This document shows, in pieces, positions 1,036 to 61,337 of a DNA stretch of 64,000 nt. Origin of the DNA: Turbatrix aceti (taxonomy: Eukaryota; Nematoda; Chromadorea; Rhabditida; Panagrolaimidae); contig OZ017767.1 in NCBI GenBank assembly GCA_963969345.1, positions 1,116,001 through 1,180,000 of the forward strand. The letters are read 5' to 3'. The notes under the pieces were generated by a model. That model was given only the letters and a program-made list of their open reading frames with translations, was not told the origin of the DNA and ran no database searches. How positions within the stretch are numbered: position 1 is the first letter of the stretch; the number at the start of each line of letters is the position of its first letter. The position numbers and the translations under genes are program-made.

Positions 1036-1365
1036 ATGCAGGAGTTTAACTACTCCGTGATTACCTTTGACGATCTCTATCATCCGACGCTGAGCGTCGT
1101 GTATTGCTACTACATGAATACCGTATACTTAATTACGACGTTAATATTTGTGCGTCTGGTGATTTTGATATTGAAACACTCGACAATTGCTATGATTCCG
1201 TGAGAAATACATTTTTAGAGTTTATCAAGTTCTATAACATGAGATACTATTTTTCAGGTTCAAATATTACCTGCTCTGCAATTGCTCGTGGTCGTATCTC
1301 AACATGACACACTTTGTTTTCTGGAAACCCGTGATCCTAATTCCTGTTACGGCCTGTTACGGTAT

Positions 1366-1766
1366 ACGGGGCGCTTGGCGTCCCGCCGGCCAAGCACCCG
1401 CGAGTGCGTGCGCCATCCCCGACGCCCGAACCGACGACACAGAAAGAACCCCGCACTGATCATCGACTACGCTACGTGCCTTCAGAGGAACCCCGGCGAA
1501 AGGAAGCGCGCTGGTCCCGTCGTGGCGACTGATGTGAGTCAGTCTTATCTCCCTGCTCGTGCGTGACTGGTTGGCCACGACGAGCTCTCTCTCTCCCTCT
1601 GTGTTGTTGTTGATTTTACTAAAACTCGTGTTGTGCCGAGATCTACGTGATTCGGCGAGGCTCAGTTGGGCTTCTGTATTTGTGCTACGAACCAGGAATA
1701 AAGCTACATCACGATTCGGAGCGACTACGGCGGAAGGGTTCAGGACTGCGGCGAGAAGCCTCGGCA
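1366..1766 (+). repeat. 5' LTR of Gypsy-type element
   Basis: Bases 1366-1761 match 4784-5179 over 396 bp with five differences (1637, 1677, 1693, 1738 and 1743), all in the last 125 bp. The inner end reads CCTCGGCA and stops at 1766. This mirrors the start of the 3' LTR (TGCCGA at 4779), giving a TGCCGA/TCGGCA terminal inverted repeat. The first ~5 bases expected at the outer end (TGCCG) are absent here. A poly(A) signal AATAAA lies at 1697-1702. Confidence 0.85.
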
Positions 1767-1770
1767 GCAA

Positions 1771-1788
1771 TTGGTGACGAGAGAACCA
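1771..1788 (+). other. Likely primer-binding site
   Basis: TTGGTGACGAGAGAACC starts five bases after the 5' LTR end. A TGG-type start just inside the LTR is the usual place for a tRNA primer-binding site. The matching tRNA was not identified. Confidence 0.5.
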
Positions 1789-1815
1789 CGCCCGTTATTG
1801 GAAGTCAGACAGAAC

Positions 1816-4800
1816 ATGAACGACACCACATCGGGCCAGCCGACGGCAGATGACGATGATGTGTTCGCATCGCCGGGACAAGTCAACGTGCAAGCGACCG
1901 GAGAAGAATCGCCCCGCCACTCGACAGTGGCCGAAAGAAGTCACAGCACCGGCTCAATTGAGCGGTTGATGACGCCAAGAAACCGGAAGACGGTGAAACT
2001 ACCTAAGCTGGAAAAGGATGGCGACTTTGAAATGTGGATCTACAGATACGAAAGCAGCATCCACAATCTTCGAATCATCGACGCGAGGGAACAACAGCAA
2101 GTGATTATCGAAAACTTGTCCGACGATGTCCTGAACGTACTCATCAGTCGACTATATCCCACCAAGCTACAAGAAGTATCAGCACAGAAAGTGATTGACA
2201 CGCTCGCGGCGGTTTTTCGCCAATCCAGGAGCCGTCTGGCTACCCGGATGGCACTACTGGACCGCAGGCAGGGATCCACAGAATCGCGCAGCACGTTTCT
2301 GGCAGATGTTTTCCAGTTATCAAGACATTGCGACTACAAAAGCAAGAGGAACTTCCGAGAAGAAGATATCATCCTGACAGTTGTCAGAGGAATGGCGGAC
2401 AACGACCTGCGGGACTTCCTGATGCTTCCGTCCAACGAGATCGAAACGACGGATGATCTGCTACGTCTAATGAAAATATACGACGCCAAGACCGAAGTCA
2501 TGAACCGAGCACGAAATCCAACATCGCATCATGAAGATCGAACGACGGCAGTGTGTCGGGTGGCGGACAGACAGAAGCAATTCAAGGGCCCCCGAGGGTT
2601 CAATGCAGCGCGCAACGCCAGCGACAGCCGACAAGATGGACGTCTGGCGTGCTACAATTGTGGCGAAATTGGTCATTTTGCGAGAGAATGTCGAACGAAG
2701 CGCGCTGACCCCAAGCAGAACACAAACGCGATCCTATCAATCATCGGAGCCGTCGAGGAAATTCCTCCCTATATGATCCAGCTGAGAATGAATGGAAGAA
2801 GGATTGAATTCATGCATGACTCCGGAGCAGTGTGCACAATTGTGACCAAGACGACCTGGGAGGCTATGGGATCCCCCAAACTGGTGAAATCGGAAAGGCA
2901 GCTCCGGAACTTTGAAGGATCGCCAATTGGGATCCTTGGAGAAATCAAAGTCAACGTCGATTGGGCCGGAAAGAAAGAAATGGCAAAGGTGGTGGTGGCC
3001 AGGACCGGAAGCTGCAACCTACTCGGCAGGGATCTGATGGAGCAGTTCAGTATCGGCAAGCCGACGAGTGGATCCAAGGTGCAATGGGTGAATGCGATCC
3101 GGGGTGGACAGCAACTGGCAAAGATCATCGATGAAGTGAGCGACTGTCAGGTACGATCACCGTTCGACTTGAAGCGGGTGGCGGCGGAAACACAAATGGA
3201 CGAATCCCTCAAAGCCGTACTCCACTACACGCAGACCAGTTGGCCTGACAGCAAAATGATCCCCGACTTGGTGAAACCATATCAACAAGAAAAAGGAAAA
3301 ATATGGAGCGATGGACTGTGTTTATGGATGGATAACCGGCTCATCATCCCAGAAGCGCTGAGGAGCGAGGCGCGTTGCCTGCTACATCAAGCCCATGTTG
3401 GACGGGATCAGATGCACATGTTGGCGCGGGATCAATTTTGGTACCCGGGTCTGGCAACGGATATCGAAAAGATCGCAAAGGGATGCGAGGCCTGCAACCG
3501 AAACCGTGCAAACCCGACAGTTCAACTCCACCCGTGGAAGAAACCCGAATCATTTTTTGAGAGGGTTCATATCGACTTCGCTGGCCCGTTCCACAAATCC
3601 ATGTGGCTGATCCTGGTGGACGCTTGGTCCAATTGGATTGAGGTAGTCAAAACACGGTCCACGTCGACGAAGGAAACGATTGCGGCTTTGAGAGAAATCA
3701 TCAGCCGCCATGGCCTCCCCAACACGTTGGTGTCGGATAACGGAACAGGATTTGTCAGCCGAGAGTTCGAGACGTTTTGTGAGATCCGGGGAATCAAACA
3801 CCTCAAATCGGCGCCATATCATCCAAGCTCAAATGGAGTAGCAGAACGAGCAGTGAGGACTTTCAAGGAGGGCGTCACGAAGAGAATGAATGCGGGGGAC
3901 TCGCTGGATGAGGCGGTCATGACCACGCTATATCTCCATCGCACCACTAAGCTCAAGGACGACGACGAAACGCCGGCCAAGAAAGTGTATGGAAGGGAGC
4001 TGCGCACTATCTTCACGATCAATGCGGTGGCGAGGGATCGACACTTTCAGCCAAACCAGTTGGTTTGGGTCAAGATGTTCAAGCCTGGAAAGGAATTCTG
4101 GGAGAGGGGTCGGGTACTTGAGCCAGTTGGCCAAGTCATGTACCGGGTGCAAGCAGGAGGAGACATGCATGTGCGGCACCGGGACCAGCTCAAAGGGGCC
4201 GAAGAGGAATTGGCGGATAAAAAAATGAAGGAACCGTGGGTTTCAGGATCGGTTAACATGCTGCAGAATCTGCGGGTATCGCTGTCACCGGGCGACGACT
4301 CCACGGACAACCATCGGCGAGTCAGGCCCCAGCCCAAAAGCGTGATCATTCGAGTTCAGCCGAAGACGACTCCCCCAGATCGGTCGGCCCCCGCATCGTT
4401 GCATCCTGACTCTGACTCCTCGGACGAGCGCCAGCGGTCCCGTCCTCAGCCAAAGAGTGTCGTGGTCAAGGTCTTTCCCAAGGTACCAATCCCCGACCGC
4501 CTGGTTTCAATGTCCACCGAGGAGCTGAAGCGGGAGCAGGCCGAGATCAAGAAGGAGCAGATCAAGCTGTCCGACGACGTGGACTACCTCCTCAAGGGCA
4601 CGGTTCAACAGATTGCGGAAACTCAAGAAAACCTGCGAATGAGTCGTCGTTTTTATGGTCCGGCGATCAAGGAGCTCACGGAGACGATGGAATTCGTCAC
4701 GCTCGCTCTCAAGAAGCTGACCGGCCTGAATGAGGAATACTGCGCCATTTGGCAGCTTCGGTCAGCTGGGAAGGGGAGTGCCGACGGGGCGCTTGGCGTC

Positions 4801-4950
4801 CCGCCGGCCAAGCACCCGCGAGTGCGTGCGCCATCCCCGACGCCCGAACCGACGACACAGAAAGAACCCCGCACTGATCATCGACTACGCTACGTGCCTT
4901 CAGAGGAACCCCGGCGAAAGGAAGCGCGCTGGTCCCGTCGTGGCGACTGA
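1816..4950 (+). CDS. Gag-protease-integrase polyprotein (no RT/RNase H)
   Basis: This is a 1,044-residue retroelement polyprotein starting at the first ATG; the frame is open back to the primer-binding site. Residues ~55-240 resemble Gag capsid. A CCHC zinc knuckle (CYNCGEIGHFAREC) lies at ~279-292. An aspartic protease follows, with DSG at ~335-337 and LLGRD at ~402-406. From about residue 415 the sequence shifts within ~30 residues to the pre-integrase region. An HHCC zinc motif (H-x3-H ... CEAC) and an integrase core follow, with Asp in VHIDFAGPF, Asp in LVSDNGTGF and Glu in NGVAERAVRTF, so the D,D-35-E triad looks preserved. The tail is proline-rich and then coiled-coil-like (EELKREQAEIKKEQ), and its last ~55 codons lie in the 3' LTR. 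No YxDD motif is present. The frame is uninterrupted, which suggests recent activity. Confidence 0.85.
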   Translation: MNDTTSGQPTADDDDVFASPGQVNVQATGEESPRHSTVAERSHSTGSIERLMTPRNRKTVKLPKLEKDGDFEMWIYRYESSIHNLRIIDAREQQQVIIENLSDDVLNVLISRLYPTKLQEVSAQKVIDTLAAVFRQSRSRLATRMALLDRRQGSTESRSTFLADVFQLSRHCDYKSKRNFREEDIILTVVRGMADNDLRDFLMLPSNEIETTDDLLRLMKIYDAKTEVMNRARNPTSHHEDRTTAVCRVADRQKQFKGPRGFNAARNASDSRQDGRLACYNCGEIGHFARECRTKRADPKQNTNAILSIIGAVEEIPPYMIQLRMNGRRIEFMHDSGAVCTIVTKTTWEAMGSPKLVKSERQLRNFEGSPIGILGEIKVNVDWAGKKEMAKVVVARTGSCNLLGRDLMEQFSIGKPTSGSKVQWVNAIRGGQQLAKIIDEVSDCQVRSPFDLKRVAAETQMDESLKAVLHYTQTSWPDSKMIPDLVKPYQQEKGKIWSDGLCLWMDNRLIIPEALRSEARCLLHQAHVGRDQMHMLARDQFWYPGLATDIEKIAKGCEACNRNRANPTVQLHPWKKPESFFERVHIDFAGPFHKSMWLILVDAWSNWIEVVKTRSTSTKETIAALREIISRHGLPNTLVSDNGTGFVSREFETFCEIRGIKHLKSAPYHPSSNGVAERAVRTFKEGVTKRMNAGDSLDEAVMTTLYLHRTTKLKDDDETPAKKVYGRELRTIFTINAVARDRHFQPNQLVWVKMFKPGKEFWERGRVLEPVGQVMYRVQAGGDMHVRHRDQLKGAEEELADKKMKEPWVSGSVNMLQNLRVSLSPGDDSTDNHRRVRPQPKSVIIRVQPKTTPPDRSAPASLHPDSDSSDERQRSRPQPKSVVVKVFPKVPIPDRLVSMSTEELKREQAEIKKEQIKLSDDVDYLLKGTVQQIAETQENLRMSRRFYGPAIKELTETMEFVTLALKKLTGLNEEYCAIWQLRSAGKGSADGALGVPPAKHPRVRAPSPTPEPTTQKEPRTDHRLRYVPSEEPRRKEARWSRRGD
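4768..4778 (+). other. Polypurine tract
   Basis: GGGAAGGGGAG lies directly before TGCCGACGGGG, the start of the 3' LTR. This is the expected position of a plus-strand primer, here within the coding region. Confidence 0.6.
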
Positions 4951-5179
4951 TGTGAGTCAGTCTTATCTCCCTGCTCGTGCGTGACTGGTTGGCCACGACG
5001 AGCTCTCTCTCTCCCTCTGTGTTGTTGTTGATTTTACTAAAACTCGTGTTGTGCTGAGATCTACGTGATTCGGCGAGGCTCAGTTGGGCTTCTGCATTTG
5101 TGCTACGAACAAGGAATAAAGCTACATCACGATTCGGAGCGACTACGGCGGAAGGTTTCAAGACTGCGGCGAGAAGCCT
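4779..5179 (+). repeat. 3' LTR of Gypsy-type element
   Basis: It starts with TGCCGACGGGG after the purine tract. It contains the last ~55 codons of the polyprotein (stop at 4948-4950) and ends at GAAGCCT (5179), where the 5' LTR continues with CGGCA. The last five bases of the LTR are therefore missing at the junction with receptor sequence. Confidence 0.85.
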
Positions 5180-5995
5180 GGGTCCTTACTCTTCAGTCTT
5201 CGGCATCAAAAACGAATATTCGTTCCGCGCCATGTTTGTTTTTGGCTTCTTCCTTGCGTACACCAACGTTGCCATGGCTCTCTACCGGGTTTCCCAAATG
5301 TGCACGGAAACAGCTCTTGCCAATTTTACGAGTCGGACGAGAAATGTAGTGATTTTGCACGTTTTGGGTGTCAGCTTGGTGTTGGGTATTTGCTACGTGC
5401 CTTGCTTCTTGATTAGTTTGGAATCACCGACTCCCTTGCAAGATCTGGAACCGTTCGTTCCTTTCATCCGGTATTTTTTTGAACACTACCAGGTCTCCGG
5501 GTACGATCGTAATAAGTTGGTAATCGTCACCTCGCTGTACACATCCGTAGAAATACCTCTAGGAATAATTCTCATCATAGCAGTTGCTGTCATCTCGTAT
5601 ACGATACATGCTCTTCTTGAATGTCGAAAGTATCTCACGAAAACTACCTTTAAAATACAGGTAAGTTTTCAGATGTTTGTTTGACGCAATCAATCATACT
5701 TCAGTTCAAACTCTTCAAATTGCTCATGTATCAAATTGGCTTTGCCGTACTGTTTCTGCTCGTGCCGTTTGCGACCATGATTGTATTTCTTGTGCTCGGC
5801 TACAACTGGGGATCGACATTGTGCTTCTTCTTATTCATGGCCATCACCTGTCACGCGCCCGTCGAGTTTATTTTCATTTGTTGCTTCATAGTGCCGTACA
5901 GAAAAAACTTCTGGGCACTTAAAAGTGATTTGACATTTTCAAAAGCGCCTACCTCTGTAATATTGATATCGACACACAGTATGAATAATGTATAA

Positions 5996-39886: not shown

Positions 39887-42250
39887 TCAGTTATTCAAAA
39901 AAACAAAAGACATCATGTAAAACGTTTCCTTGTCCATCCGATGCCTCAGATCCGTCACCAGTTTCTTAGCCTCTGCGAAGAGTCGCTCCGAAGCATCCCT
40001 GATCACCGTCAGACACGCGTACCTCTTGTACGTCAGCGCCAGGTGAGGAAAGTCGTGTTGCTGGGATTCCCAGTACGCAGCCACCGACTGGTCCTTGGCG
40101 AGTCTCGGCTGCTCGAGGTACCTGGCGACCTCCTGCTGGATCGGGCACTCACCGCGCACCTCCCTCAGGTAGCGGGCGTTGTCGGCGGCCTGTTCGTACT
40201 TCGTGTAGCCGCTTTCCTGGGGGTCTCCGGACGAAACAAGCGGGACGGCGGGGATGAAGTCGTCCTGGATCCATTTGACGTACTGTGGAAGACAGGTGTC
40301 TGTCAGGTAGGTCGACTTGAATCTCGGATCGACCAGTGTCGTAAGCACAAAGCACTTTTCACGTTCGATAATTTTGAGGGTGGATTTCAAGTCTTTGGAA
40401 AAATTCGCGGTCGTCAGTTTTTCAACTTCCGAATCCAAATTTTTCTTTTCGTCCAAAACCATGATACCAACTCGGAGCGCAGGGATAACAGCCGACGGTG
40501 AGCCTCCAGGTGAGCCCGAGTACACAAAATCCGTGACGTCAGACAGGCTTTTGAGAATTCCAAGCAGTGACCCGAGAATCGTCATCTCAGTTTTGGTGAG
40601 TTCAGGAACCTGAATTTTCGGCGTGTTCAGACATATGAAATAGGTCAAAAGTTGTCTCAGTGTTCTCCAATGAATTTCAACTCCATCTTCCAGAATGTGC
40701 CACGGAATGGAAGATTCATCGTAAAATTTGGCATTCGAGGTTGACGAGTTTCGGTCCTTTCGGAAAAATTTTTTGATGCGATTGATGACTTCTTCGTCCA
40801 TAAACGATTTCAGGCGGCCAGTCATTATCTGAAAAAATGGAATTCATCAAAATTTTTAAATAAAAAAAATTTTGTTACGCACATCAAATTTATCAACATT
40901 TTTGAAAAAAAATTCGTTGCACAAAATTAGAAAAAAATAAAGCTTTATATTCTTGCGCTAACCACCAGTTTTTTTTGTAATTAAAATTTCTTTCAAAATC
41001 AACTTTTTTGATACAAAAAACTCGTATCTAAATTCGTTACAACAAATACTAAGAAGTATCAGTTAAAAACCCACAAAAACTTACATTTTGCAAAACTTGA
41101 TCAAAGTAGGCCACCGTTTGGACGCCAAAAACCGTAACCTGTCCATTGGCATCGCCGCTTCCATCGACCAAGCTTCCATCTACATTTTCGGTCGCTTGAG
41201 TCGCCATCGGTTTCCAAACAACGTTCACCAGTTTCGAAGCGTCCAATTTGAACCTCGAAATCAGAGATCCAACAGCCTCGGTCACAAATCCAGAATCAGG
41301 GACATTCTTGACCAGAAATACTCCCAGAACGAATCTTTCGACCTCAAAATTGCTTTTCACAATTTTGACGCTGATTGTGACGAGGTGACGGTCGACCGAC
41401 GGCGATGACCACTGGTCAACGGCCATCGAAAAGTACGAAGCCTCAGCAACCTTTTCAGTAATCTTAGACTCGAGTTCGGCGGCCACTCGGGGTAGAACAG
41501 TCTCGGAAAAGTGATGGGAGCTGGGAATGGGGTAGTCAGGCTCCATGAACTGAATCATTTCCTGGAACGAGGGTTCTTCGACGATGGAAAACGGATGCAG
41601 GCCTTTGACGACGAAATTGAAGATTGCGTTGTCGTGCGAAGACGGCTGTTCGTCGGATAAGGGTGGCATGACTAAAAAAAGGAATGTGACCAGTTATGAT
41701 TAAAATTTTGAATTTAAAATATACGATTTGTTTTTTATGCGCAAATCAAGAGAAAGACAGTGACAAAAAAATAGAACAACAAAAATTAAAAGACAAAACA
41801 ATTTTAAAAATGTCAAAAAAACTACAAAAAGCACTCGAAATATCAAAATTTACCGTAATAACAATATTCGTTGCGAGACCTCTCAAACGCGCACGCGCAT
41901 TGATAAACAACCAATTCAAAAAAGCCGAGCAGTTATCAAAAATCAAAGAACCAACCTTTTTTCGGTCCAAAAAAAGCCTTCTTGGCCGGAGAAGGCTCAG
42001 ACAGAGGCAGAAGCTGAGGCTGTTGGATGAAAGCGAGGAGGTCGTTGGCCGAGAAGACGGCCTCTTTGGCTCTCTTTTTCTCGTCGATGGCCCTGAGCCA
42101 CTCGGGATGTGCGTGGGCGAGGTGCCGTCTCAGATCTGTGGTTGTGTTGATGGTCCGCGAATAAGTCTTGGACCAGCCGCACTTTTCGTCCCGACAGAAT
42201 CTCTCCATTCCATTTTTGACAAAATATTCGTCGTACGCGCTGGATTTCAT
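39887..42250 (-). CDS. BED zinc finger / hAT transposase-derived protein
   Basis: Three minus-strand exons: 41956-42250, 41085-41671 and 39887-40828, GT-AG with consistent phases; 607 residues. Residues ~1-60 contain a BED-type finger (YFVKNGMERFCRDEKCGWSK ... LRRHLAHAHPEW, C-x4-C ... H-x3-H). The middle has the hAT core start, FSMAVDQWSSPSVDRHLVTI, with the first catalytic Asp. The C-terminus (~540-607, VAAYWESQQHDFPHLALTYKRY ... ASERLFAEAKKLVTDLR) is the hAT dimerisation domain. The expected second Asp motif (TDNAxNM) appears replaced by VVWKPMATQATEN, and the CxxH region between exons 2 and 3 is not seen. No terminal repeats or 8-bp duplication were found around the gene. It may be a domesticated DNA-binding gene, a decayed transposase, or a model missing an exon. 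An acceptor-like TTTTAG lies 11 bases before the ATG. Confidence 0.7.
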
Positions 42251-58934: not shown

Positions 58935-61029
58935 TTAACCTTTTTTAGCTTTACTAATTTTCAATAAATTCTTACAATAACAATAGGATTCCAAAGGATT
59001 TTCTTTTACACACTTTGCCTGATCTCCGTATGCATTGCTTCGAGGAAACATTGTGGATTCGATGCTAAAATTGCCGGAAGACAAATCTTGGAGCACGTAA
59101 GCTTCGAATGCTCCATCTCCGGGCGATGTTTTCCATGCGATTTTGTACACTGTTTGATTTCCATTTTCACGGAAACCGTACGCATTCACATTTTCGGTAA
59201 TGTTTAGTGTGAGCTTTGAACAAAGAGCAGCAGTTTTGTTATTTGCAGACAATTCTTGGTTCATTCGTTCCACGCAAGCAAGGGCCATTTTGACGGTTAA
59301 CGAATCGTTGCGCAGCACTTTTGTTTTCTGGAAATCACACATGCAATATTCGAAGGGGATTCTGAGTCTGTCACAGGTACGGGGTTCTTTTAAAGGTTCG
59401 AGGAGGTTTTCACCGTGAATTATAGGATTGGGAATTGTTGTGTTAATCGGCTGAAATTTGTAAATAATTTGTCTCCGATGAAAATGTAAAAAAAACAACG
59501 GACATCCGAAATGTTCTCCAGTGTAGCATAAATATCGTAATGTGATATCAGTTTCATAGAATTCGCTCTCAACTGATCCAAAAGTTGATCACTTCTCTTA
59601 TTTTCCGGCACTGAAATCCACAAAAATGGATTTTTATCTTCAACCGTGCCAACATCTGTATTCCGGATTCTTCCAAATCGCATTCCGTGATCGCCCATGA
59701 TAAACAGGTAACTGTTTTGAAAATGTTCTTCATTTTTCTGTAAAAATCTGTAGAAATAATCATCGGCGTGATACAATCCATTTATATCGTTGTGAGACAA
59801 GTACGTGTACCAGGTTAACGAAAATAGAGGTCGATCAGGATACGTGTCAATTAATTTTTGTTGGTAATCCAATAACTGGTGTACATCTTCTCTGCACTGT
59901 CCACTAAACACGTTTTTACTGTAAGCAGGATTAGCTAATGTAATTAATTGAAAAGGCTTGAAAAAATGCTGTGCAAGGGGTTTTGCAAATCCTTTGCAAT
60001 TTGGATAATTAAATACGGTATAAGTCCAATCTTCGGCCATCATTGTAACGTAACCAGCGTCTCTGTATCGATGTATAATGAACTGATCATTGTCAAAAAG
60101 AGTCCGGCAGGAATCAATGACAAAATCACTGTCGTATCCAGTTGAAAAAGGGGAAGGCGGAATTTTGAATGCTGCTTTACCAAGTAAAAACGCGATGGCA
60201 TTAGGACGGCTGTTTTCGGCGACTTTATTGAGGTAGTGCATGGGTTGAGCTTGCAAGTTATTACGGAGGAACGTTTTTGTACGCACCATTGCGCGCTCAA
60301 AATGTGATTTGGAGCTGGAATCGATTACTATGATGTGAACATTTGGCAGTTTTTTTGCAGGCGGGGGAGGTAGCTGGCTTCTAAAATCAAGTTGATTTTT
60401 AAAATTAAAATCTTTTTTAATTTAAATTTTTGTTCAGTTTCTTACTCATTCCGAAAAATAAGTTTGTGTACAAATTGATACGTAGCATTGCCGGAACCTT
60501 TGTTGCACTCAATCTGTATGACGTCACACGGGGGTTTTGTATTATTCACCAGCTTAGTCCAATTAGCAACTATCATTTGAGAACCGCTTTTTGGCAAAAT
60601 ACACCTGTAAGAACAGTTGAGCTTTTTGGTTTCTGGAAGCATGATAACCGTGTTGTTGACAATCGTTGTCAACTTCTTATATGTCGGTTTGCAATCTTTA
60701 ATTGGATTTTTGTTCGGATCAAATATTTTTTCTATTGCAAAATCCCATGGATCAAGTTTAGGAAGTTCACAGTGGTCGAAGAGAAGGGTTATGTTCAAAC
60801 TTGAGACAGTAGACGACGTTGTTGTACTTGGGAATTCTTCATTCATCAAAACTAAAAAAGTATAAATGTTTTACAACGTTAAGTTTTTTAAATCAATTAT
60901 TTTACCTTTACCACTGTAAACGTCATAAATTCCATCATTTTCTGACTCTTCCATAAAATTTGCATACTGCAACATAAAGATGCATAATGATGCCAAAATA
61001 GATCCCAAATGTAATATCGTTAGCTTCAT
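58935..61029 (-). CDS. DUF229 protein (alkaline-phosphatase/sulfatase superfamily), copy 1
   Basis: Four minus-strand exons: 60906-61029, 60446-60851, 59504-60380 and 58935-59450; 640 residues. An N-terminal hydrophobic anchor (residues ~3-23) suggests a signal anchor with the rest lumenal or extracellular, supported by many N-glycosylation sites (NNT, NCS, NAT, NKT). A cysteine-containing stem (CKPTYKKLTTIVNNTVIMLP, NCSYRC) is followed by the catalytic-type domain: PNVHIIVIDSSSKSHFERAM (the usual nucleophile region), MMAEDW, FSLTWYTYLSHNDINGLY and MGDHGMRFG (metal-binding Asp-His). The C-terminal part (PRTCDRLRIPFEYCMC) is cysteine-rich. The family is expanded in nematodes; substrates are not known. 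The donor of the last intron is weak (GAT|gtccgt), but its position matches copy 3. Confidence 0.82.
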
Positions 61030-61137: not shown

Positions 61138-61337
61138 NNNNNNNNNNNNNNNNNNNNNNNNNNNNNNNNNNNNNNNNNNNNNNNNNNNNNNNNNNNNNNN
61201 NNNNNNNNNNNNNNNNNNNNNNNNNNNNNNNNNNNNNNNNNNNNNNNNNNNNNNNNNNNNNNNNNNNNNNNNNNNNNNNNNNNNNNNNNNNNNNNNNNNN
61301 NNNNNNNNNNNNNNNNNNNNNNNNNNNNNNNNNNNNN
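61138..61337. other. Assembly gap (200 N)
   Basis: Exactly 200 unknown bases, typical of a placeholder. It removes the 3' part of DUF229 copy 2 and perhaps upstream sequence of copy 1. Comparison with copy 1 predicts at least ~0.96 kb of coding and intron sequence here, so the true gap is larger, or copy 2 is really truncated. Confidence 0.95.

What the first reader, a model, noticed from the sequence alone, without database searches (positions are those of the whole stretch)
1366..5179. LTR retroelement with intact Gag, protease and integrase but no reverse transcriptase/RNase H
Directly seen: one 1,044-codon frame goes from the protease (DSG, LLGRD) to the pre-integrase zinc domain within about 30 residues, with no YxDD or RNase H motifs, no frameshift and no stop. 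Known: Ty3/Gypsy order is Gag-PR-RT-RH-IN. Inference: the RT/RH block was removed in frame, near codons 415-445. With nearly identical LTRs, such a copy must have been copied in trans. It keeps its own packaging and integration functions, unlike most non-autonomous LTR elements, which lose coding capacity.
Basis: partly seen in the sequence, partly recalled or inferred. Interest (0 to 1): 0.75.

Follow-up and report, generated by a model that had tools for sequence, protein, structure and literature searches.

The report
RT-less retrotransposon and its mirror partner
A worm genome carries several young, near-identical copies of a jumping element that lost its copying enzyme but kept its shell, protease and integrase genes, together with two sister copies that kept the copying enzyme but lost the shell gene, and no copy with both was found, so the two kinds may depend on each other to move.

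Summary
Window 1816-4950 is one intact 1,044-codon Gag-protease-integrase frame with no RT or RNase H match. The searches found 6 close copies with the Gag region, and all 6 share the junction. Against two RT-bearing sisters the loss is exactly 1,398 bp (466 codons), at ATGAA microhomology, never GT..AG. LTR pairs identical within copies, copy-private variants and one target duplication indicate copying by an RT in trans.

New here: both RT+ sisters lack the Gag capsid. L012 has identical LTRs, a target duplication and a 1,276-aa frame with a 702-bp in-frame capsid deletion; the other (C1:2.736 Mb) starts at the same boundary. 0 of 8 such copies have both blocks. L009 (RT-) and L012 (RT+) are identical over 2,228 shared internal bases.

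The window copy is irregular: truncated LTR ends, no target duplication, mixed-type LTRs, inside a chemoreceptor exon. A full-length helper missing from the assembly is not excluded and is the main rival. Each half has precedents (IAP 1-delta-1, Quinta, BARE2), and one plant protein has a similar RT-less layout; reciprocal loss within one family is the unusual part.

The parts
1366..1769 (+). 5' LTR (404 nt; first 5 nt of the 409-nt LTR missing); its last part carries three variants of the RT+ (L012) type
   Evidence: complete LTR in L010
1771..1783 (+). Primer-binding site TTGGTGACGAGAG; a copied tRNA-like 3' part continuing from it is present in L014
1804..1805 (+). Point in the leader where 105 nt (GT...AG, possibly a spliced-out intron, with an upstream in-frame ATG) are missing relative to L009, L010, L011 and L013
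1816..4950 (+). Single ORF, 1,044 aa, Gag-PR-IN fusion without RT/RH
2020..2304 (+). Gag capsid region (PNMA-type match, below Pfam cut-off)
2647..2694 (+). CCHC zinc knuckle (nucleocapsid)
2776..3042 (+). Aspartyl protease (DSGA, LLGRD), just below Pfam cut-off
3131..3135 (+). Deletion junction ATGAA: 1,398 bp (466 codons, RT + RNase H) absent relative to L012 and the C1:2.736 Mb copy
3346..3510 (+). Integrase H2C2 zinc-binding domain
3568..3825 (+). Integrase core (rve); D-53-D-35-E triad at residues 602, 656, 692 of the frame counted from 1771
4768..4778 (+). Polypurine tract GGGAAGGGGAG
4779..5179 (+). 3' LTR (401 nt; last 8 nt of the 409-nt LTR missing); RT-less type; the ORF stop lies inside it
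1258..1365 (+). Interrupted host exon, left part (Srh-type chemoreceptor; exon start inferred from TTTTCAG)
5180..5684 (+). Interrupted host exon, right part (Srh-type chemoreceptor; right limit is the end of the open frame, the exon end is not determined)

Best explanation
The window element is one copy of a young Ty3/Gypsy-derived, non-autonomous family made by a single in-frame deletion of the RT-RNase H block, most likely a template switch during reverse transcription at a 5-nt repeat (inferred). The family still codes Gag, protease and integrase (shown at sequence level). Its RNA must have been copied by an RT supplied in trans (follows from the absence of RT plus several LTR-regular copies). 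The nearest RT source seen is the reciprocal sister: two copies with uninterrupted protease-RT-RH-integrase frames that lack the Gag capsid. The likely working model is shared particles: Gag from the RT-less RNA, RT from the Gag-less RNA, with or formerly with a full-length parent that is not in this assembly (inferred).
For: No RT/RH by HMM or motif. 6 of 6 close Gag+ copies share the junction: window, L009, L010, L011, L013, L059. The 5 that have LTRs have an uninterrupted 1,044-aa frame; L059's frame is also open. LTR pairs are identical in L009 and L010; in L011 the one difference is an N at a gap, and its private T is in both LTRs; in L013 the 5' LTR has a 57-nt internal deletion and is otherwise the same. 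L010 has the target duplication CAGCC. RT+ sister L012: identical LTRs, target duplication GGGGC, 1,276-aa frame with RVT_1 and RNase H, no capsid model with max_evalue 10; 702 bp missing in frame at a 9-nt repeat. The second RT+ copy, C1:2736438-2740250, is open from ATG to stop, with its 5' end at the same GGCAGTG boundary. L009 and L012 are identical over 2,228 shared internal bases, while their 8 LTR differences lie within 129 nt (LTR positions 255-383; rough chance under uniform placement 5e-9), as expected if RT+ and RT- templates recombine. Three complete relatives (family B) show the order Gag-PR-RT-RH-IN (Pfam run on L062 only).
Against: No expression, particle or mobilisation data. 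Of the 6 RT-less copies only L010 has a verified target duplication; L009 has none, L011 and L013 run into a gap or contig end, L059 has no LTRs, and the window copy has truncated ends and mixed LTRs. Only one Gag-less copy (L012) is structurally regular, so its capsid loss could have happened in its last copying cycle. An older relative at C6:5.690/5.697 Mb keeps parts of both gag and RT. The assembly has 200-N gaps and contig ends at copies of this family, and the searches give lower bounds for repeats, so a full-length helper may be missing. Family B is complete and shares the primer site, so it is another possible RT source.
Confidence: 0.85

Rival explanations
1. Ordinary parasite of a full-length parent: an autonomous Gag-PR-RT-RH-IN member of the same family exists in this species (or existed until recently) and supplied everything; both deletion types are its by-products, like mouse IAP 1-delta-1.
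For: Both deletion types are near-identical outside the deletions, so a complete common parent existed recently. The assembly has gaps and contig ends at family copies. An older tandem relative at C6:5.690/5.697 Mb retains parts of both gag and RT. Known pattern in IAP.
Against: No close copy with both the Gag capsid region and RT among the places found by the gag and RT searches.
Confidence: 0.5
2. Cross-mobilisation by the complete family B (L062, L063, L064), without any role for the Gag-less sister.
For: Family B has three copies with LTRs 100, 100 and 99.8% identical and 5-bp target duplications as I read their flanks; the primer-binding site TTGGTGACGAGAG is the same.
Against: Family B is only about 50-73% identical in protein to this family; LTR ends and polypurine tracts are similar but differ; the variant pattern points to exchange with L012-type sequence; exchange with B was not tested.
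Confidence: 0.12
3. The RT-less copies multiplied as DNA (segmental duplication, gene conversion) or are assembly artefacts, not by reverse transcription.
For: The window copy has no target duplication, truncated ends and mixed LTR types; L059 lacks LTRs; L009 abuts an inverted fragment.
Against: The flanks printed for the LTR-bearing copies differ, the LTR ends are exact in L009 and L010, L010 has a target duplication, and copy-private variants are shared by both LTRs of L011 and of L012.
Confidence: 0.05

Closest known systems
Mouse IAP 1-delta-1 subfamily
   Same: Internal deletion giving a Gag-Pol fusion frame; needs proteins in trans; responsible for most new IAP insertions (PMC7411935, PMC6466679, passages read)
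   Different: The 1.9-kb deletion takes part of gag and pol; a full-length IAP helper copy is described. Here RT+RH is lost, protease and integrase stay, and no complete copy was found
RLG_Quinta / RLG_Cereba and RLG_Sabrina_SA (wheat)
   Same: Non-autonomous partners that contribute Gag, or Gag plus protease, and lack RT (PMC11302176 section 5; PMC9744471 passages)
   Different: They lack integrase as well and rely on an autonomous partner
BARE2 (barley)
   Same: Element that cannot make Gag and is packaged in the particles of another element, like L012 (PMC3735527 passages)
   Different: Its partner BARE1 makes its own Gag and is not an RT-less reciprocal; BARE2 lost its Gag start rather than the capsid block
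Predicted plant protein P0013 (hypothetical protein MLD38_029019, Melastoma candidum, 1,071 aa)
   Same: Gag, protease and integrase models, no RT or RNase H model with max_evalue 1
   Different: Distant (27% over 27% of the query or less: 26% identity, 27% covered); a single annotated protein whose gene model, LTRs and copies were not examined
Bipartite form of foot-and-mouth disease virus that arose in serial passage
   Same: Two complementary defective genomes displacing the complete one (described in PMC5680193, passages read)
   Different: RNA virus in culture; an analogy of principle only

Membership tests
Ty3/Gypsy-type LTR retrotransposon | LTRs, primer-binding site, polypurine tract | tested here: met
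   (LTR ends truncated in the window copy, complete in L010)
Ty3/Gypsy-type LTR retrotransposon | Gag-PR-RT-RH-IN coding order | tested here: not met
   RT/RH absent in the window copy; order met in L062, and in L063 and L064 by motifs. Filed as a derivative, not a complete member
Ty3/Gypsy-type LTR retrotransposon | Target-site duplication of integrase insertion | tested here: not met
   none seen for the window copy; met for sister L010
Trans-mobilised non-autonomous LTR family (IAP 1-delta-1 kind) | Several copies sharing one deletion junction | tested here: met
   6 of 6 close Gag+ copies found
Trans-mobilised non-autonomous LTR family (IAP 1-delta-1 kind) | LTR pairs generated by reverse transcription | tested here: met
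   L009, L010, L011; not met by the window copy, whose LTRs are of mixed type
Trans-mobilised non-autonomous LTR family (IAP 1-delta-1 kind) | Complete helper of the same family in the genome | tested here: not met
   no close copy with gag capsid and RT; assembly gaps and capped searches limit this
Mutually dependent two-part element | Reciprocal open frames in structurally regular copies | tested here: met
   RT-less L010 and Gag-less L012, both with target duplications; one such copy of each
Mutually dependent two-part element | Each needs the other to move | not testable with these tools
   needs particle and mobilisation data

The most novel reading that the evidence does not exclude
A Ty3/Gypsy element has split into an obligate two-part retrotransposon: a Gag-protease-integrase RNA and a protease-RT-RNase H-integrase RNA, each moving only inside particles built by both, with no complete parent left, a transposon counterpart of multipartite viruses.
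Probability: 0.2. Interest if true: 0.85.

Novelty: new variant of a known kind. Interest (0 to 1): 0.6.

Why it matters
In the non-autonomous LTR elements read about here, dependence is on a partner that codes everything, or at least the missing part, itself. In this genome all 8 coding copies found lack one essential block, the losses are reciprocal and in frame, and both kinds left young regular insertions. If no complete parent exists, it would be a natural case of genome splitting in a retrotransposon and would make complementation, co-packaging and their evolutionary stability directly testable in a small animal genome.

Tried and rejected
Splicing as the origin of the RT loss: rejected, because none of the 6 possible placements of the junction gives GT..AG; likewise none of the 10 placements of L012's gag deletion. 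Splicing remains likely for the separate leader gap. A hidden or degenerate RT in the frame: rejected. Domestication of the window copy: not supported; it interrupts a host exon.

Relatives elsewhere: the protein search gave 18 hits, best 33% identity over 33% of the query. By the Pfam columns 10 of 18 list PF00078 (RT) and 6 list PF07727 (a second RT model, named). P0004 lists RNase H models only, with a weak partial RT match on rescan. P0013, a plant protein, lists neither and on rescan shows Gag, protease and integrase without RT or RNase H. So the RT-less layout has at least one other annotated instance, not examined further. Viral contigs gave no relative.

The Srh-type chemoreceptor match (25.5 bits, cut-off 26.3) points to a nematode.

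Literature: nine full-text searches. I noticed no LTR family lacking only RT/RH with a reciprocal Gag-less partner in their listings. The library misses most subscription papers, and most listed papers were not opened. Seven papers were opened: PMC11302176 (outline with abstract, section 5) and, in passages only, PMC7411935, PMC6466679, PMC9744471, PMC3735527, PMC10309623 (55, not used in the argument) and PMC5680193.
Full report
What is there. The frame 1816-4950 between two LTR copies is open and codes Gag, a CCHC knuckle, an aspartyl protease and an integrase with its zinc domain and a D-53-D-35-E triad. No reverse transcriptase or RNase H model is listed with max_evalue 10 and no RT motif that I looked for occurs. 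The capsid and protease matches are below Pfam's cut-offs.

Copies in the genome. LTR, RT, integrase and gag DNA searches give eight close copies with substantial coding sequence. Six have the gag capsid region: window, L009 (C6), L010 (C2), L011 (C1), L013 (C19), L059 (C5). Two have RT: L012 (C4) and the C1:2.736-Mb copy (L018/L015). None of the eight has both. In the six, gag end and integrase start are 80 bases apart, as in the window, and the blocks adjoin, so all share the junction. Dropped from this count: L014 (3' fragment with three LTRs), L016 (an LTR with a short polypurine stretch), the inverted fragment beside L009, the more distant family B, and the older tandem relative at C6:5.690/5.697 Mb (LTR part 79%, gag parts 84-89%, first part of RT 85%), which keeps pieces of both gag and RT. 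The search tool states that repeat counts are lower bounds.

The deletion. Against both RT+ copies it is 1,398 bp, 466 codons, in frame, with ATGAA at both ends; none of its 6 possible placements has GT..AG. It removes RVT_1 and both RNase H matches of L012 (domains within residues 276-630, deletion about 204-669) and leaves the protease and integrase matches. The complete relative L062 aligns on both sides: matches end at its residue 498 and restart at 924.

The mirror image. L012 is bounded by GGGGC on both sides, has identical 409-nt LTRs and a 1,276-aa frame. It lacks 702 bp (234 codons) of gag, from residue 12 of the 1,044-aa frame to about 33 residues before the zinc knuckle, between two copies of CGACGGCAG. 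Pfam finds RT and RNase H and no capsid model with max_evalue 10. The C1:2.736-Mb copy has no 5' LTR; its homology begins at the same GGCAGTG and its frame is open from an upstream ATG to the stop. Its RT block differs from L012's by one residue. The shared boundary suggests common descent or a strand-transfer hot spot; I cannot decide.

Age and exchange. L009 and L012 do not differ over 2,228 internal bases from the zinc-knuckle region to the LTR; in the LTR they differ at 8 of 409 sites, all within 129 nt. Under uniform placement such clustering has a rough chance of 5e-9 (one search gave 3e-8 for a wider stretch and 0 of 2 million simulations). Both ignore differences between sites. This argues for recombination between RT+ and RT- templates, as happens when two RNAs share a particle (inferred). 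Against family B all four coding blocks show a lower proportion of non-synonymous than synonymous differences, with synonymous sites at or near saturation; this concerns the long past, not the deleted forms.

The window copy is unusual. It lacks 5 and 8 terminal LTR bases and has no visible target duplication. Its 5' LTR carries three of the eight L012-type variants and its leader is short as in L012, while its 3' LTR is of the RT-less type with one private change. It looks like a recombinant captured by end joining or altered by gene conversion rather than a plain integrase product (inferred). Its flanks rejoin as one open exon matching the Srh chemoreceptor family across the site (just below Pfam's cut-off). 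The leader gaps in the window (105 nt) and in L012 (109 nt) begin at the same GT and end at two AGs 4 nt apart, which suggests splicing of the leader before reverse transcription (inferred; short repeats could also explain them). An upstream in-frame ATG (MPVETRSQ, compare MPMITRSQ in L062) lies inside the gap; that it is the usual Gag start is inferred.

Mechanism. Shown: loss of RT, several LTR-regular RT-less copies, a regular Gag-less RT+ copy. Following from retroviral biology (recalled): an RT in trans. Inferred: the RT comes from Gag-less sisters or a complete parent, with Gag supplied by the RT-less copies. Keeping protease and integrase may help particle maturation and integration, but at this age open frames need no selection to explain them.

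Comparison. IAP 1-delta-1, Quinta and Sabrina_SA are Gag-bearing RT-deficient partners; BARE2 is a Gag-less partner. P0013, a predicted plant protein, has the same kind of Gag-protease-integrase layout. Each half is therefore a known kind. I found no report of both halves within one family without a complete copy (nine searches named under Tried and rejected).

Limits. No reads, RNA or other strains were available; 200-N gaps and contig ends touch family copies. The complete family B, with the same primer site, is another possible helper.

Noticed in passing
L014 (C2:9344500-9347800): Tandem LTRs followed by an inverted LTR, joined through a copied tRNA-like 3' part that continues the primer site: it looks like a fossil of an aberrant reverse-transcription product. 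The 29-base tRNA-like core occurs at 12 other places in the genome (13 in all; presumably tRNA genes, not verified).
   Followed up: partly
L059 (C5:4905000-4911500): RT-less copy without LTRs but with an open frame, near-identical to the others; its 3' end (window 4766) nearly coincides with the end of the inverted fragment beside L009 (window 4765).
   Followed up: partly
C17:1-1295 versus L013 (C19): A separate contig begins with the flank of the L013 insertion and stops 5 bases short of its LTR; C19 itself ends exactly at the LTR end. Possibly allelic or a graph break.
   Followed up: partly
L062, L063, L064: Single-ORF Ty3/Gypsy-type elements with near-identical 582-bp LTRs and 5-bp target duplications: a young, apparently complete second family.
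   Followed up: partly
window 39887-40843 (-): hAT-type transposase C-terminal dimerisation domain.
   Followed up: no
window 61138-61337: 200-base run of N near a DUF229 gene at 59420-60421.
   Followed up: no
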